The position numbers and the translations under genes were made by a program. Positions 4,128-30,489 of a DNA stretch of 42,500 nucleotides are shown here, piece after piece (the first letter of the stretch is position 1; every line of letters begins with the position of its first letter). The stretch spans positions 1 to 42,500 of the forward strand of contig CACOXF010000001.1 in NCBI GenBank assembly GCA_902631125.1, given 5' to 3'. The DNA comes from an uncultured Bacteroidota bacterium (GTDB taxonomy: Bacteria > Bacteroidota > Bacteroidia > Flavobacteriales > Flavobacteriaceae). The notes under the pieces are model-generated. The model searched no databases, had not been told where the DNA came from, and saw nothing but the letters and a program-made list of their open reading frames with translations.

Positions 4128-6584
4128 TTATTTGATTTTACGAAGCTCTTTATTTGCTTTATGGGTGGTCAATGCAAAATCCAGTACATCAATCATAGAA
4201 GAAACGTATTGAAATTGTAAGCCACGAAGATAGCTTTGATTGATTTCATCTACATCTTTTTTGTTTTCAGCACACAATATGATGGTTTTGACATTTGCAC
4301 GCTTTGCAGCAAGGATTTTTTCTTTGATACCACCCACAGGTAAAACCTTTCCTCTTAATGTAATCTCACCTGACATTGCAATTCTACTTTTCACTTTGCG
4401 CCCTGTAATGGCAGAAACCAAAGAAGTAAGCATCGTAATTCCAGCACTGGGGCCATCTTTGGGAGTTGCTCCTTCTGGAACGTGAATGTGATAGTTACTC
4501 CTGTTCAGTTCCTCTGCGTTTGTGCCTATTTGATCTGCATACGATTTAATAAATTCCAAGGCAATTGTGGCAGATTCTTTCATGACTTTACCCAAATTTC
4601 CTGTCAGAGACAACTTTCCTGATCCCTTGGTCACCAAAGACTCAATAAAGAGAATATCTCCACCCATTTGCGTCCAAGCGAGGCCTGTCACTACACCTGG
4701 AACTTCATTGTTTTCATAGGCCGCTTTTGATACCTTTTCAGCACCAAGAATATCTTCAATGTATTTGGTGTCAACCGATGCCTCAAAGGTTTCTTCCATT
4801 GCTATGGTTTTTGCACGATTCCGAATCACTTTCGCAATTGTTTTATCGAGACCTCGAACACCCGACTCACGAGTGTACCCGGAAACAATCTTTTTTAAGA
4901 CGGACTTGCCAATTTTAATGTCATTTGCTGTCAGTCCATGTTCATTGATTTGCTTTGGAACCAAGTATTTTTTCCCAATGGCAATTTTCTCTTCAAGAGT
5001 ATATCCACTCAATTGTATAATTTCCATCCGATCCAACAAAGCTGGCTGTATGGTTGAGAGTGTATTTGAAGTTGCAATAAATAGAACTTTTGAAAGATCG
5101 TAACCAAACTCTAAAAAATTGTCATAAAACTCACTGTTTTGCTCAGGGTCAAGCACCTCAAGTAGTGCTGACGAAGGGTCGCCACTCATTCCTGAAGAAA
5201 GTTTGTCAATTTCATCTAGAACGAAGACCGGATTAGATGTACCTGCCTTCTTTATATTTTGCAAAATTCGACCTGGCATTGCACCAATATAAGTTTTTCG
5301 ATGACCTCTAATTTCTGCCTCATCACGCATACCACCAAGAGAGATTCGTACATATTCTCTACCCAGTGCCTCTGCTATCGATTTACCCAGTGATGTTTTT
5401 CCAACACCAGGAGGACCTGTCAAACATAAAATGGGCGATTTCATATCGTTTCGAAGTTTCAACACAGCCAAAAACTCAATGACACGCTTTTTTACCTTCT
5501 CCAATCCAAAGTGATCTCTATCTAGAATGCGCTGTGCACGCTTTAAATCAAAATTATCCTTTGAAAATTTGTCCCAGGGTAAATCGAGGAGTAGCTCTAA
5601 GTAATTTCTTTGAACACCATACTCTGCGACTTGAGAATTCATTCGTTCAAACTTTAAAAGTTCTTTTTCAAAATGCGATTTTACTTTTTTACTCCACTTT
5701 TTTTCACGACAACGAATTTTCATATCTGCAACATCCTTATGAGATGAAGATCCACCCAATTCTTCTTGAATGGCTTTCATCTGTTGATGTAAAAAATACT
5801 CACGTTGTTGCTGGTCTAAATCATTGCGCACTTTGGACTGCACCTCGTTTTTCAGCGAAAGCTTTTGAAACTCCACATCCATATGCTTGAGACAAAGTAA
5901 TGCTCGTTTGTGAAGATCATTGCTTTCCAAAATCTTTTGTTTATCAACAGATGCCATACTCATATTAGATGAAACAAAATTGACTAAGAAAGAATCACTT
6001 TTGATATTGTTGATTGCAAAAGACGCCTCAGACGGAATATTGGGACTATCAGCGATGATTTGAAGCGAAAGGTCTTTGATAGAATCGATGACTGCAGCAA
6101 ACTTTTTATCTCCCTTCTCGGGTCGTACGTCTTGCAACTCAGTAACTGTTGCTTTCATGTACGAATGGGATTCTATAAATTTTTCGATCTGAAAACGTTT
6201 TTTACCTTGCAGAATTATTGTAGTATTGCCATCAGGCATTTGTAGAATTCGAAGAATACGAGCCAGTGTTCCGACTTTATGAAGATCTTCTTGCTCTGGA
6301 GATTGAACTTTGGAATCGAGTTGAGCAACAACCCCAATCAATTTATTTGATGCATTTGCATCTCGAATCAGTTGTATGGACTTGTCACGCGTGGCAGTGA
6401 TTGGAATCACAACACCGGGAAACAGCACAGTATTGCGCAGTGGTAAAATGGGAATCACTTTGGGAACAGGCTCTTTCAAAATCTCTTCCTCGTCGTCTGT
6501 TGTCATCAACGGAATCAACTCTGCGTCAACTTCGAGCTCCTCTAATGATAGTTCATCCAATGAAATCAATTTTGCTTTGCTCAT
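4128..6584 (-). CDS. lon: ATP-dependent endopeptidase Lon
   Basis: 818 residues, normal for LonA. It has an N-terminal substrate-recognition domain beginning IPILPLRNTVLFPGVVIPI, a coiled-coil linker (about 230-330), and an AAA+ module with Walker A GPPGVGKTSLGKS, Walker B VFVLDEIDK and sensor-region TSNTL. The C-terminal Ser-Lys protease domain has the nucleophile in PKDGPSAGITM and the Lys in GGIKEKILAAKRA. Lon degrades misfolded and short-lived regulatory proteins in the cytoplasm. ATG at 6584. It heads the lon-porQ-cmk run. I found no clear TANNTTTG box directly upstream, so its promoter is undefined here. Confidence 0.97.
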   Translation of the reverse strand: MSKAKLISLDELSLEELEVDAELIPLMTTDDEEEILKEPVPKVIPILPLRNTVLFPGVVIPITATRDKSIQLIRDANASNKLIGVVAQLDSKVQSPEQEDLHKVGTLARILRILQMPDGNTTIILQGKKRFQIEKFIESHSYMKATVTELQDVRPEKGDKKFAAVIDSIKDLSLQIIADSPNIPSEASFAINNIKSDSFLVNFVSSNMSMASVDKQKILESNDLHKRALLCLKHMDVEFQKLSLKNEVQSKVRNDLDQQQREYFLHQQMKAIQEELGGSSSHKDVADMKIRCREKKWSKKVKSHFEKELLKFERMNSQVAEYGVQRNYLELLLDLPWDKFSKDNFDLKRAQRILDRDHFGLEKVKKRVIEFLAVLKLRNDMKSPILCLTGPPGVGKTSLGKSIAEALGREYVRISLGGMRDEAEIRGHRKTYIGAMPGRILQNIKKAGTSNPVFVLDEIDKLSSGMSGDPSSALLEVLDPEQNSEFYDNFLEFGYDLSKVLFIATSNTLSTIQPALLDRMEIIQLSGYTLEEKIAIGKKYLVPKQINEHGLTANDIKIGKSVLKKIVSGYTRESGVRGLDKTIAKVIRNRAKTIAMEETFEASVDTKYIEDILGAEKVSKAAYENNEVPGVVTGLAWTQMGGDILFIESLVTKGSGKLSLTGNLGKVMKESATIALEFIKSYADQIGTNAEELNRSNYHIHVPEGATPKDGPSAGITMLTSLVSAITGRKVKSRIAMSGEITLRGKVLPVGGIKEKILAAKRANVKTIILCAENKKDVDEINQSYLRGLQFQYVSSMIDVLDFALTTHKANKELRKIK

Positions 6585-6803
6585 AGATTATGTCATTTTG
6601 TCTTATTTTTACTGCTAAACAATTTATTTGTCAGTTGCAGTCAGTCGATTTGTATTAAAATCGCACCTTTTACAATTAAAGAGTATATCCTTCAACATCC
6701 ATGCCAACCATATTTTAAGTAATTATCATTATATCTAATTTACCAGATCTAAAAATCATGAATTATTTATTTATCACGATTATTCATCAATAGTCTTTTG
6801 TTT

Positions 6804-7460
6804 ATGATCAATTTAGACACAATTAAAGGCAACAACGTTTGAGAAACCTTACAATTTACAACTCAAAAATTTGATAGTTTTGAAATTTCTGCTCCCTCAA
6901 ATGTAACTTCAGAAAAAGGTAAGCATTACGAAGTTAAAATTATAGGCGAATGCAATGTAATACCTAAAGTATTTACTCAGGTTAAAAACAAAACTTTTCT
7001 TCTGAATAAGTTTAACAATGTGAAACTTCAGGGAAATGTAATAAGTAGAATACCAGTAACATTCACAACTTAAGATATTTCCGAAATATATGTGCTCGGA
7101 TCAGCAAAGGTTTCAAGTACGTACAACATAAAATCAAAACATTTATCTTTATGAATAATTGGTTCAGGTGAGATTAGTCTTATCATTAATTGTCAGAACG
7201 AACGTATCTTTTGTTATTGGTGGTTCTGGTAATTTTATTTTAAAGTTAATTGTAAAATCATTAAAGAGTAAGTCATTGGCTAGAGGAATCTTCACACAAG
7301 CCAATTGAAATCTAAAAATCATTTATTAAAATTGTTGGATCATGTCATGCAAGTGTTTGCTCGCTATAAAAGCTGGGTGTATCGATCAATGGAACTGCTG
7401 TTGTGACCTACGCAAGTGAACGCAAAAAAGTTGATATCACAACTTGGCTTGGAGATAAAA
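6804..7460 (+). pseudogene. Decayed GIN-domain (DUF2807-like) adhesin-type protein gene
   Basis: No intact gene lies in 6585-7471, but translating 6804-7460 across three frames gives one continuous family-like sequence. Frame of 6804: after a TGA at 6840, FTTQKFDSFEISAPSNVTSE then GKHYEVKIIGECNVIPKVFT. TAA at 7071 interrupts before DISEIYVLGSAKVSS, and a TGA at 7152 precedes GSGEISLIINC. The next frame gives VSFVIGGSGNF from 7204. The third frame, from 7328, gives KIVGSCHASVCSL, a TAA, then VSINGTAVVTYASERKKVDI. The Gly-Ser-Gly turns and the strand periodicity match DUF2807 (putative autotransporter adhesin head GIN domain), an envelope beta-helix family common in Bacteroidetes. A remnant signal peptide may start at 6758 (MNYLFITII). 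At least three stops and two frame changes argue for a pseudogene. Family assignment is by eye. Confidence 0.6.
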
Positions 7461-7471
7461 AACATCAGTAC

Positions 7472-8785
7472 TCAGTTGGTCATTCTTCTATGGATTCGAA
7501 TGAGCAGAAACGCTCCTATCAGGAAGAATGATAGAAAAAACAAAACTGAATTTCGCATCGAACCAGTGATTTGATCAATAGTCCCAAAGAGCAGCATCCC
7601 TATGACAATGCCAGTCATTTGTGATGTACTGTAAAAACTAAAGAAGGATGTGGTATCATCTGTTTTTGGGATAAATTTTGAATATGTGGATCGAGCCAAG
7701 GATTGTATACCTCCCATAGACAATCCAACAAATCCAGCTGCAATGTAAAATTGGATAGGTGATCGAACGAAGAATGCATATAGACATAGGCTTACCCAAA
7801 TGAAATTTAGGGTAATTAAAACAGGTAGATTTCCAAACTTTTTTGAACATTGTGCAGTTATGTTTGCACCAAAAATTGCGATTAGTTGAATGATCGTGAT
7901 ACTTATAATCAGTCCAATTTGCTTTTCACTTGAGCTTCCCCAATTGATCTCTTGTTCGCCAAAATAGGCTGCAATCAACATCACAGTCTGAACTGCCATA
8001 CTAAACACAAAAAAAGCACCGGTGTAGCTTTTTAGAATAGGATTATTTGAAAAAGTTTTCCAAACAGTACTAAGCTCGCGATATCCATTGAAAAAAACTT
8101 TGTTAGTCAATGGATTTTTTGAAATGTTTTTTGGTAAAAATCTGAAAGCAATTTGACTGAAAGCTATCCACCAAACTCCTACAGAAATAAATGAATATTT
8201 CATCGCTTTAACAGATGCTTCTGAGGCTGTACCCTCAATACCATATAAACTAGGATTGAGCACCATACTCAGATTAACAACCAACAACAAAACACTGCCT
8301 ACGTAACCAAGAGAATAACCCAAAGCACTCGCTTTGTCCATCTGTTCTGGATGAGCAATGTCTGGTAGATAAGAGTTGTAAAAAACCCAACTCAACCATG
8401 CCCCAACAGAAGCAAAAAAATAGCAAATCAAACCAAAATAAATATTGTCCAGATTGAACCAGTACAGGCCTACGCAGGATAGTGCTCCTACGTAGGTGTA
8501 AAACTTCATGAATGATTTTTTATTCCCAACATAATCTGCAATTCCAGAAAGAATGGGGGATAAAATAGCAACGACTGCAAATGCAGCTGCAGTGGTATAA
8601 CTGATCAACGCAGTGTTTTTTAATGACTGTCCAAAGATTTCAATGTATAAATTGTCAGCAAACAACGACCCATAGTAAATCGGAAATATAGTTGAAGTAA
8701 TGACTAAAAAATAAACCGAATTTGCCCAGTCGTATGAAGCCCATACGCGTATAAGTGTATTACTACCTTTTTGTAACTGCAACAT
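7472..8785 (-). CDS. MFS transporter, UMF1/Atg22-like family
   Basis: 437 residues from ATG at 8785 (MLQLQKGSNTLIRVWASYDW). Reading can extend upstream to 8881, but the extra N-terminus is unlike the family and would overlap the divergent gene. There are about twelve hydrophobic segments. YDWANSVYFLVITSTIFPIYY near the N-terminus is diagnostic of the UMF1 (Atg22-like) MFS branch; GIADYVGNKK fits the MFS loop 2-3 motif; GGIQSLARSTYSKFIP lies in the second half. It is an inner-membrane transporter. Atg22 of yeast exports amino acids from the vacuole, but bacterial substrates are not established. It is divergent from the hydrolase at 8861, with 75 bp between starts. Confidence 0.88.
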   Translation of the reverse strand: MLQLQKGSNTLIRVWASYDWANSVYFLVITSTIFPIYYGSLFADNLYIEIFGQSLKNTALISYTTAAAFAVVAILSPILSGIADYVGNKKSFMKFYTYVGALSCVGLYWFNLDNIYFGLICYFFASVGAWLSWVFYNSYLPDIAHPEQMDKASALGYSLGYVGSVLLLVVNLSMVLNPSLYGIEGTASEASVKAMKYSFISVGVWWIAFSQIAFRFLPKNISKNPLTNKVFFNGYRELSTVWKTFSNNPILKSYTGAFFVFSMAVQTVMLIAAYFGEQEINWGSSSEKQIGLIISITIIQLIAIFGANITAQCSKKFGNLPVLITLNFIWVSLCLYAFFVRSPIQFYIAAGFVGLSMGGIQSLARSTYSKFIPKTDDTTSFFSFYSTSQMTGIVIGMLLFGTIDQITGSMRNSVLFFLSFFLIGAFLLIRIHRRMTN

Positions 8786-8860
8786 TGTTAATTTAGAGCA
8801 CCAAAATAGTGAAAATAATGTGTTTGACTTTTTTATATTTACTAACTTTATTGAATTACA

Positions 8861-9727
8861 ATGAAAAAGAACAGAAAACAAAGGCCAGCAGTGCGTGTCC
8901 CCACTTTAATTCGATTAGTAATTTGGCTGTCGCAACTTATTTCTAGTGCGTTGGCTACGAAAGTAGCCTTGTATTTTTTTTTTCGACCACATCGTTTCAA
9001 AACGCCCAATCGAGAGCATCAAATGCGTGATGCAGCAGAGCAAATAAAGTTTTCTGTTTCTTCTTTTGATAAAGAAATTCAAGTTTACAGATTGAAAGGC
9101 GATAAACAGAAAGTTTTATTACTACATGGTTGGAGTGGTCGAGGAACACAACTTTTTTCCTTTGCTGACGAACTGCAAAAGGAAAATTGTGAGGTCATCA
9201 CATTTGATATGCCTGCGCATGGTCAATCACCCGGAAACAAAACCAATGTACTTGAACTAACATATTGTATACAGGATCTCAATCAAAAATTTGGGCCTTT
9301 TGATGCTGCCATTGCACACTCTATGAGTGGTTTTGCATTATTAAGAGCAATTAAAGATGGTTTGCCACTGAAATCAGCAGCAATCATTGGAAGTGGAGAT
9401 TCGATAAAAGGGGTCTTTTATCGATTCTCGCAACAACTCCATTTTTCTGATAAAATAACAGAACGAATGATTACTTCTGTTGAAAATAAATTTGGCATAA
9501 AACTTGAGACATATGCGTCGAGAATTAATATAAAAGATATCGATATTCCATTGTTGATTGTCCATGATAAAGATGACAAAGAGGCACCTTATGAGTGCAG
9601 CACTACGCTTCATGATTTGGCTCGAAACTCACAACTTAAATTAACATCAGGTCTTGGGCATCATAGAATTTTGAGAGACCCTAAAACTGTTCAACATATT
9701 GTTCAATTCTTATTTCAACACCCATGA
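8861..9727 (+). CDS. Alpha/beta hydrolase
   Basis: 288 residues. The N-terminus is basic and then hydrophobic (about 13-40), possibly a membrane-associating helix. The hydrolase fold follows: HGWSGRG oxyanion motif (89-95), FDMPAHGQSPG (115-125), nucleophile elbow AHSMSG with Ser154, acid at Asp236 or Asp238/239 (VHDKDDKEAP) and His267/268 (GLGHHRIL). The substrate cannot be inferred. The elbow has Ala and Ser where GxSxG enzymes have Gly. It starts at ATG 8861, with a TTTG (8823-8826) and a near-consensus TAACTTTA (8843-8850) ahead. Its stop overlaps the msrB start as ATGA, so the two are probably translationally coupled. Confidence 0.85.
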   Translation: MKKNRKQRPAVRVPTLIRLVIWLSQLISSALATKVALYFFFRPHRFKTPNREHQMRDAAEQIKFSVSSFDKEIQVYRLKGDKQKVLLLHGWSGRGTQLFSFADELQKENCEVITFDMPAHGQSPGNKTNVLELTYCIQDLNQKFGPFDAAIAHSMSGFALLRAIKDGLPLKSAAIIGSGDSIKGVFYRFSQQLHFSDKITERMITSVENKFGIKLETYASRINIKDIDIPLLIVHDKDDKEAPYECSTTLHDLARNSQLKLTSGLGHHRILRDPKTVQHIVQFLFQHP

Positions 9728-29939: not shown

Positions 29940-30285
29940 TTTTTTTGGTCTCAGTACTTACAAATGTCAATTGGATTTTGGCAGTTTTACAAAGTGTCTT
30001 TCTTGATCATAGATGGAGTAGGAAAAATCAGTAATTGAACTCGGCACTTTATCCATATAGATTTCAATTTCTATCGCATCATCACAATATTAAGGATGTT
30101 TGAACTATGTTGATAGTGATATTACTGGAAGCAGTATGACTCGCATTTGAAGCTATGCAAAAATTAACCCAAAGAAACGCAACCATTCGATTCTTGCAAA
30201 CTCAAAATAAGTTGCTTAACTATCTTGTTGAATTACACCCATTAGGTCAGTTTTTAAATAGCGAGTTTTTAATTTAAAAGTAATT

Positions 30286-30318
30286 TTTTCTTACAAATTA
30301 TATGTATTTTCTTACAAA
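30286..30318 (+). repeat. 12-bp direct repeat, two copies at 21-bp spacing
   Basis: TTTTCTTACAAA is present identically at 30286-30297 and 30307-30318, start to start 21 bp (two helical turns), with AT-only DNA plus one G between them. The position about 170-200 bp upstream of dnaA and the helical phasing suggest a protein-binding site; the binder is unknown. Confidence 0.5.
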
Positions 30319-30408
30319 ATAAAATTGATTTGTTCGTCCATAATATGCACAAAAGTTTCTTAAAATTCAATACTAAAAAAGTTTTTTTTCATTTTTTTTC
30401 AATGCATA

Positions 30409-30436
30409 TTTGTTAAAGAGTTTTAGAAAAACTTTG
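30409..30436 (+). promoter_or_regulatory. Predicted dnaA promoter
   Basis: TTTG (30409-30412), 16 nt, then AAACTTTG (30429-30436), one mismatch to TANNTTTG. The start site would be near 30443, giving a leader of about 47 nt before the dnaA ATG. Spacing is at the short end of what is seen in Bacteroidetes. Confidence 0.35.
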
Positions 30437-30489
30437 TTTTACAGAAGCCCCATTTAAAAACAGAAAAAACAAACAAAAGACGACAAATA

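What the first reader, a model, noticed from the sequence alone, without database searches (positions are those of the whole stretch)
6804..7460. Decaying GIN-domain (DUF2807-like) surface protein gene in the largest coding gap
Stitching three frames together gives a continuous beta-rich sequence with the repeated Gly-Ser-Gly turns of this Bacteroidetes envelope family (SFEISAPSNV, EIYVLGSAKV, IIGSGEISL, VIGGSGNF, VSINGTAVV). Stops at 6840, 7071, 7152 and 7367 and at least two frame changes interrupt it. In a genome this compact, a still readable wreck suggests recent loss of a surface function, or else sequencing errors, although several independent lesions make the latter unlikely. Family identity is judged by eye.
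Basis: partly seen in the sequence, partly recalled or inferred. Interest (0 to 1): 0.6.

Follow-up and report, generated by a model that had tools for sequence, protein, structure and literature searches.

The report
Broken surface-protein gene in shrinking genome
A small-genomed flavobacterium carries the ruins of a gene for a secreted, surface-type protein, the last remnant of a four-gene cell-envelope cluster that many larger-genomed relatives keep at the same place; it is an ordinary dead gene, but it shows one step of a stepwise gene loss unusually clearly.

Summary
Window 6758-7444 (+) is a dead gene of the DUF2807/head-GIN family (PF10988, 44.3 bits, cut-off 24.2). Against the ortholog of congener G007 it aligns over all 229 residues with 7 in-frame stops and 4 frameshifts, between lon and an ATG22-like MFS gene. 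Of 13 genomes of the genus, only G003 and G005 have an undisturbed frame there. G001 shares three lesions with the window, and the two copies differ evenly at all codon positions (43:39:40; dN/dS 0.85, lon 0.08): sequencing error is excluded, and the loss is not very recent.

New here: among 63 other Flavobacteriaceae genera with lon and MFS as neighbours, 46 hold an ECF-sigma/GIN cluster (usually four genes) between them, 3 GIN only, 8 nothing, 6 something else. The cluster stands in 1 of 13 small genomes (under 2.5 Mb) against 45 of 50 larger ones (relatedness uncorrected). Some larger genomes lack it beside MFS too. The window is a late stage of this erosion; a GIN paralog elsewhere in its genome stays intact. 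An ordinary pseudogene in an instructive place.

The parts
6758..7444 (+). DUF2807 / head-GIN domain pseudogene (remains of a secreted protein of about 240 aa)
   Evidence: PF10988 44.3 bits at 6870-7199; alignment to the G007 ortholog, 149/230 identical, 7 stops, 4 frameshifts
6791..6793 (+). first in-frame stop (TAG), codon 12, inside the presumed signal peptide
6813..6817 (+). -2 frameshift at codon 20, shared with G001
6840..6842 (+). in-frame stop TGA
   Evidence: read from the sequence
7071..7073 (+). in-frame stop TAA at codon 106, shared with G001
7152..7154 (+). in-frame stop TGA
7269..7271 (+). in-frame stop TAA
7281..7283 (+). in-frame stop TAG at codon 175, shared with G001
7367..7369 (+). 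in-frame stop TAA
4128..6584 (-). lon (endopeptidase La), intact left flank
   Evidence: TIGR00763 908 bits; no stops
7472..8881 (-). ATG22-like MFS transporter, intact right flank, convergent with the pseudogene
   Evidence: PF11700 208.5 bits; no stops

Best explanation
The stretch is a pseudogene, decayed in place, of a secreted DUF2807/head-GIN beta-helix protein. Shown: the family, the place, the lesions, neutral drift, and lesions shared with a sister species. Also shown: many relatives keep beside the same MFS gene a cluster on one strand of an ECF sigma factor, a protein with one hydrophobic segment, usually a large beta-rich protein, and GIN. Read from the tree: this lineage lost the other genes once, kept GIN alone, and then lost GIN repeatedly. 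Inferred: the cluster is an operon for envelope sensing or response in which the single-segment protein is the anti-sigma factor and the beta-helix proteins are secreted output or sensor; cells with reduced genomes dispensed with it. The wreck now has no such product: its first stop lies in the presumed signal peptide and a frameshift follows at codon 20.
For: PF10988 over cut-off. Full-length alignment to a same-locus ortholog with 7 stops and 4 frameshifts. Shared with G001: the -2 frameshift at codon 20, TAA at codon 106, TAG at codon 175. G000-G001 differences by codon position 43:39:40 and dN/dS 0.85, against 0.081 (lon) and 0.082 (MFS), with similar dS of 0.227, 0.244 and 0.211. Copies with open or nearly open frames in four congeners evolve under constraint (dN/dS 0.25-0.38). 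The AlphaFold model of the G005 ortholog (pLDDT 89.1) matches 3PET, a Bacteroides fragilis DUF2807 structure (TM 0.82/0.90). ECF and GIN stand beside MFS in 66 of 112 other genera, with all four genes in 62; lon is seen within 5 kb in 46 of the 66. All four genes in 20 of 70 named non-genus loci. ANTI-D4097-GIN also occurs in another family of the order (L032). Profiles of the second and third gene find 0 of 13 genomes of the genus, with 3 of 3 full-cluster control genomes ringing.
Against: The genus genomes are 58-86% complete by the tool's measure, so absence elsewhere in a genome is not certain. The anti-sigma and beta-rich proteins match no Pfam family over cut-off, and Foldseek TM-scores of the latter are low (query-normalised 0.21-0.36 for matches with E up to 0.001), so the function is inference. 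The link with genome reduction is not strict: 24 larger genomes show neither lon nor GIN within reach of MFS, and within Flavobacterium L151, L159 and L161 have a bare gap and L140 GIN only (sizes not measured). Small-genomed genera may be related to one another.
Confidence: 0.95

Rival explanations
1. Sequencing, assembly or amplification error in an intact gene.
For: The G000 assembly has 88 contigs and 65% estimated completeness; some congener copies with a single lesion (G008, G011, G012) could be errors.
Against: Eleven lesions in 0.7 kb while the flanks lon and MFS are clean. Three lesions are shared with G001, a different genome. Substitutions are spread evenly over codon positions.
Confidence: 0.02
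2. Not dead but recoded or phase-variable: frameshifting or stop readthrough still yields a protein, or slippage switches it on and off.
For: The sequence is still readable across frames.
Against: All three stop codons occur, 7 stops in all, with 4 frameshifts, and the protein-level constraint is gone (dN/dS 0.85); a recoded gene would keep it.
Confidence: 0.01
3. The interval has been kept for another role, such as the lon promoter, a terminator or a small RNA.
For: The first bases upstream of lon are conserved among five close genomes.
Against: No Rfam match in 6400-7600. The gene part drifts at about the synonymous rate of the flanks. Eight other genera get by with a gap of 109-182 bp.
Confidence: 0.04

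Closest known systems
[quoted passage not shown] solved members 3PET, 3LJY, 3LYC, 4OPW, 3JX8, 4YGU
   Same: Family profile over cut-off; the intact ortholog has the fold (3PET TM 0.82/0.90), a signal-peptide-like N-terminus and repeated Gly-Ser-Gly turns.
   Different: The window copy is broken. The G005 ortholog is only 23-31% identical to the 27 members from outside the genus in alignment A2.
PGN_1547 of Porphyromonas gingivalis, a DUF2807 protein whose deletion reduces biofilm formation and attachment (PMC10949514; abstract and passages seen)
   Same: Same domain family.
   Different: A distant, host-associated species in which the function was tested. No evidence that the protein of the window's genus is an adhesin.
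Toastrack proteins (DUF4097/DUF2154/DUF2807) of LiaFGI/PSP envelope-stress systems (PMC11237479; two passages seen)
   Same: Same domain superfamily, next to a regulator in the complete cluster of relatives.
   Different: The regulator here is an ECF sigma factor with a probable anti-sigma factor, not LiaRS or PspC; the two passages seen do not describe this arrangement.

Membership tests
DUF2807 / head GIN (PF10988) | Profile match over the curated cut-off | tested here: met
   Window 44.3 bits against 24.2 with stops read through; intact G005 ortholog 133.5 bits. Two single open pieces of the wreck (65 and 26 aa) match nothing alone.
DUF2807 / head GIN (PF10988) | Beta-helix fold as in the solved members | tested here: met
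   Model of the intact G005 ortholog, pLDDT 89.1, best match 3PET, E 9.2e-13, TM 0.82/0.90; tested on the ortholog, not on the broken copy
DUF2807 / head GIN (PF10988) | Export signal at the N-terminus | tested here: inconclusive
   Hydrophobic N-terminus ending in AQ or SQ in G003, G005, G007 and G012, judged by eye; no signal-peptide predictor was available. The window copy has a stop at codon 12.
DUF2807 / head GIN (PF10988) | Adhesin function | not testable with these tools
   Seen here only as reported for a distant member, PGN_1547
Pseudogene (decay in place) | Intact ortholog at the same locus in relatives | tested here: met
   G003 and G005 intact, G007 nearly so, all between lon and MFS
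Pseudogene (decay in place) | Several disabling lesions and loss of codon constraint | tested here: met
   7 stops, 4 frameshifts; 43:39:40, dN/dS 0.85
ECF sigma / anti-sigma / secreted beta-helix cluster | Regulator genes present beside GIN | tested here: not met
   The lon-MFS interval of the window has none; 0 of 13 genomes of the genus match the second or third gene, so the window holds a remnant, not a member

The most novel reading that the evidence does not exclude
One lineage of Flavobacteriaceae took an ECF-sigma envelope operon apart in a fixed order: the sigma factor, its partner and the large beta-rich protein went first, once; the GIN gene was kept as an orphan under selection (dN/dS 0.25-0.38) and was then lost at least five times independently within one genus. 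If so, the GIN protein has a use of its own without its regulator, and that use disappears in some small-genomed cells. The genus is then a natural experiment that could reveal the function of DUF2807 by correlating its presence and absence with habitat.
Probability: 0.5. Interest if true: 0.45.

Novelty: new member of a known kind. Interest (0 to 1): 0.35.

Why it matters
A single locus shows the full gene cluster, orphan gene, wreck and clean junction in related bacteria, which makes the order and repeatability of envelope-gene loss countable. It also ties a little-studied surface-protein family to an ECF sigma factor cluster, a testable lead on its function.

Tried and rejected
Rfam on 6400-7600: no match. 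Pfam and NCBIfam on the anti-sigma-like and beta-rich genes: nothing over a cut-off. Pfam on two single open pieces of the wreck (65 and 26 aa): nothing, so the family is visible only with stops read through. Paper searches: 'DUF2807' 5 papers (listing; two of them opened for passages); 'GIN domain' with adhesin and Bacteroidetes 1 (listing); 'head GIN domain' with 'sigma factor' 0; five streamlining terms together 0; any two of DUF4097, sigma factor, Bacteroidetes 489, of which 10 were listed (listing only); any two of genome streamlining, marine Flavobacteriaceae, pseudogene 162, of which 10 were listed (listing only); Toastrack with anti-sigma 0. I saw no description of this gene cluster in these, which cover open-licence papers only and mostly listings. 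A first tree used genes in the wrong orientation and was thrown away; one search stopped before the tree; one search is the valid one. The idea that the MFS neighbour decays too was dropped for the window (MFS intact), although G010's copy is broken.

Rows left out. One search used 112 of the 128 non-window genomes with an MFS match; 16 were dropped because their only match was a paralog of about 42-45% identity or a fragment (four of these 16 have 1.8-2.2 Mb assembled). The test compares 66 full with 11 reduced loci and leaves out 35 of 112 (25 with neither lon nor GIN in reach, 6 with another filling, 4 cut). Among those 35, G133, G063 and G158 keep the three other genes without a detected GIN, and G092 has them on the other strand. 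In one search I repeated it with nothing left out: full cluster in 1 of 14 small and 65 of 98 larger genomes (p 2.9e-5). The only small genome with the cluster is G070. In one search, 6 of 80 loci had no state, two genus loci with remnants (L086, L088) were labelled clean, and the window itself is not in the tree (10 congeners are).

Full report
What is there. The gap 6585-7471 is the largest between main ORFs of the window (887 bp; about 93% coding). PF10988 (DUF2807, head GIN) matches its + strand at 6870-7199 with 44.3 bits (cut-off 24.2), with two stops inside; a second match in the same genome, G000:C6:3542-4084, has no stops (97 bits). Aligned with the ortholog of G007, allowing frameshifts, the whole gene is recognisable at 6758-7444: 149 of 230 columns identical, 7 in-frame stops, 4 frameshifts, score 612. 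The best of 15 shuffles scored 38. The first stop lies in the presumed signal peptide.

The same place in the genus. All 13 genomes of the genus, the window's included, have the MFS and lon genes. In 12 of them both lie on one contig (in G011 only part of lon); in G010 they lie on two contigs. I read the interval in all 13, in G010 without its middle. Undisturbed frame: G003, G005. Frame open but about 12 residues shorter at the end: G007. One lesion seen: G008 (AAG where the others have the start ATG), G011 (frame broken near the start), G012 (one TAA). Several lesions: G000, G001, G004, G010. Mostly deleted: G002 (remnant of codons 144-240 with 4 stops), G006 (weak remnant of codons 1-27), G009 (197 bp, no clear remnant). 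Single lesions in draft genomes may be errors. Names, matched by me through contig length: G001 AG-908-E14, G007 AG-913-F17, G002 AG-349-I20 (titled uncultured Bacteroidetes isolates), G010 AG-920-I17 (titled MAG), G004 UBA5950, G006 SP190, G008 TMED81 and others (MAGs). The window's own record was not named.

How it was lost. G000 and G001 are sisters (support 100) and share a -2 frameshift at codon 20, TAA at codon 106 and TAG at codon 175; G004 and G010 have none of these where they can be read. So the gene died before the G000/G001 split, and separately in G004 and G010. G004's three stops are not in G010, but its frameshift at codon 120 falls in the unread middle of G010, so these two may share one event. 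With distinct deletions in G002, G006 and G009 this makes at least five losses in the genus, six if G004 and G010 are separate, seven with G012 (inference from lesion patterns). Between G000 and G001, differences at codon positions 1, 2 and 3 are 43, 39 and 40 (dN/dS 0.85), while lon has 21, 8 and 125 (0.081) and MFS 18, 3 and 58 (0.082); dS is alike (0.227, 0.244, 0.211). The copies of G003, G005, G008 and G012 show dN/dS 0.25-0.38, so the gene was under selection where it survives. The less damaged pair G004-G007 gives 0.34.

Paralogs. The genus has three GIN loci. B lies between rnr and a LysE-family gene and is intact in G000 (224 aa; G000-G001 dN/dS 0.22); going by position and length it was found without stops in 9 of 13 genomes and not found in G005, G009, G011 and G012. 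C lies before yebC: matched in 7 of 13 genomes, intact in G012, interrupted in G003, G004, G007 and G008, cut by the end of a contig in G005 and incomplete in G011; no match in G000, G001, G002, G006, G009 or G010. So of three loci the window's genome keeps one intact GIN gene, B.

The ancestral cluster. Outside the genus, in Flavobacterium sinopsychrotolerans (L120), the MFS-lon interval holds four genes on one strand: an ECF sigma factor (PF04542, PF08281), a 197-aa protein with one hydrophobic stretch, a 354-aa beta-rich protein, and GIN (PF10988, 180 bits) next to MFS. Of 70 named non-genus loci, 20 have all four, 3 are cut by the locus end but have GIN and D4097, 10 have GIN only, 18 have a bare gap of at most 306 bp, 13 another filling and 6 are undecided, two of these with a GIN piece at the locus end (classes set by me). 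These 70 are among the best matches to the window's MFS, not a random sample. In a second set of one genome per genus, 66 of 112 have ECF and GIN beside MFS (62 all four genes; lon in reach in 46), 3 GIN only (one of them, G134, a short piece), 8 a bare gap of 109-182 bp, 6 other fillings, 4 GIN but cut, and 25 neither lon nor GIN within the stretch read, mostly 5 kb. ANTI-D4097-GIN also occurs in one of five loci from other families of the order (L032; no MFS within its flank), which favours the cluster as ancestral; the other four show GIN without these neighbours within 1.5 kb. In the tree of 80 loci, the ten congeners of the window, nine of the ten other GIN-only loci and one undecided locus (L118) fall on one side of a supported branch (99; 20 rows), which reads as one loss of the other genes. 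The tenth GIN-only locus (L140, a Flavobacterium) stands elsewhere in the tree, and three Flavobacterium (L151, L159, L161) have a bare gap (root placed at the midpoint). In the sister group L092 (two stops) and L148 (one frameshift) are damaged too.

Genome size. The 11 reduced loci (8 bare, 3 GIN-only) are all in genomes of estimated size under 2.5 Mb; 1 of 66 full ones is (Fisher p 1.8e-12, Mann-Whitney p 2.1e-7). Where lon is in reach, the cluster stands in 1 of 13 small and 45 of 50 larger genomes (p 2.7e-8); over all 112 it is 1 of 14 and 65 of 98 (p 2.9e-5). So 33 larger genomes lack the full cluster beside MFS, 24 of them with neither lon nor GIN in reach: these were not followed up and may be rearrangements or losses. 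Relatedness is not corrected for, and estimates divide assembled bases by completeness. Profiles of the second and third gene find 0 of 13 genomes of the genus, 0 of 5 reduced genera, and 3 of 3 full-cluster genera used as controls.

Structure and function. The model of the intact G005 ortholog (pLDDT 89.1) matches DUF2807 crystal structures, 3PET best (TM 0.82/0.90). The third-gene model (pLDDT 90.9) has 4QRK and 3PET as best Foldseek matches but with low TM-scores (query-normalised 0.21-0.36); my label D4097 for it is a resemblance, not a Pfam match. Toastrack is the published name for a domain uniting DUF4097, DUF2154 and DUF2807, linked to envelope-stress systems (PMC11237479, two passages). 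A P. gingivalis DUF2807 protein affects biofilm formation and attachment (PMC10949514, abstract and passages). From this I infer an envelope sensing or surface role for the cluster; the anti-sigma assignment rests on position and a single hydrophobic segment only.

Verdict. The find is an ordinary pseudogene; its worth lies in the erosion series around it.

Noticed in passing
G010:C11:41305-42712 (L045, L046, L073): The MFS (ATG22-like) gene next to the locus is itself interrupted in G010 (two overlapping pieces with 2 TGA and 1 TAA), though intact in the window.
   Followed up: partly
L169, L170, L171, L172, L173 (SDR-C-yebC locus): A third GIN paralog before yebC is also being lost in the genus: interrupted in G003, G004, G007 and G008, and without a match in six genomes including G000.
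   Followed up: partly
L163:3479-4153 (G000:C6): GIN paralog B sits tightly between rnr and a LysE-family gene and has no stops in the 9 of 13 genomes in which it was found; its retention while A and C decay suggests a separate role.
   Followed up: partly
L094, L106, L109, L115, L123 (MFS-lon interval): In these Flavobacterium and Aequorivita loci the GIN cluster is absent and the interval holds a gene of 169-475 aa on the other strand with a lipoprotein-like start (by eye).
   Followed up: no
window 29940-30489: Second largest coding gap of the window (550 bp); not examined.
   Followed up: no
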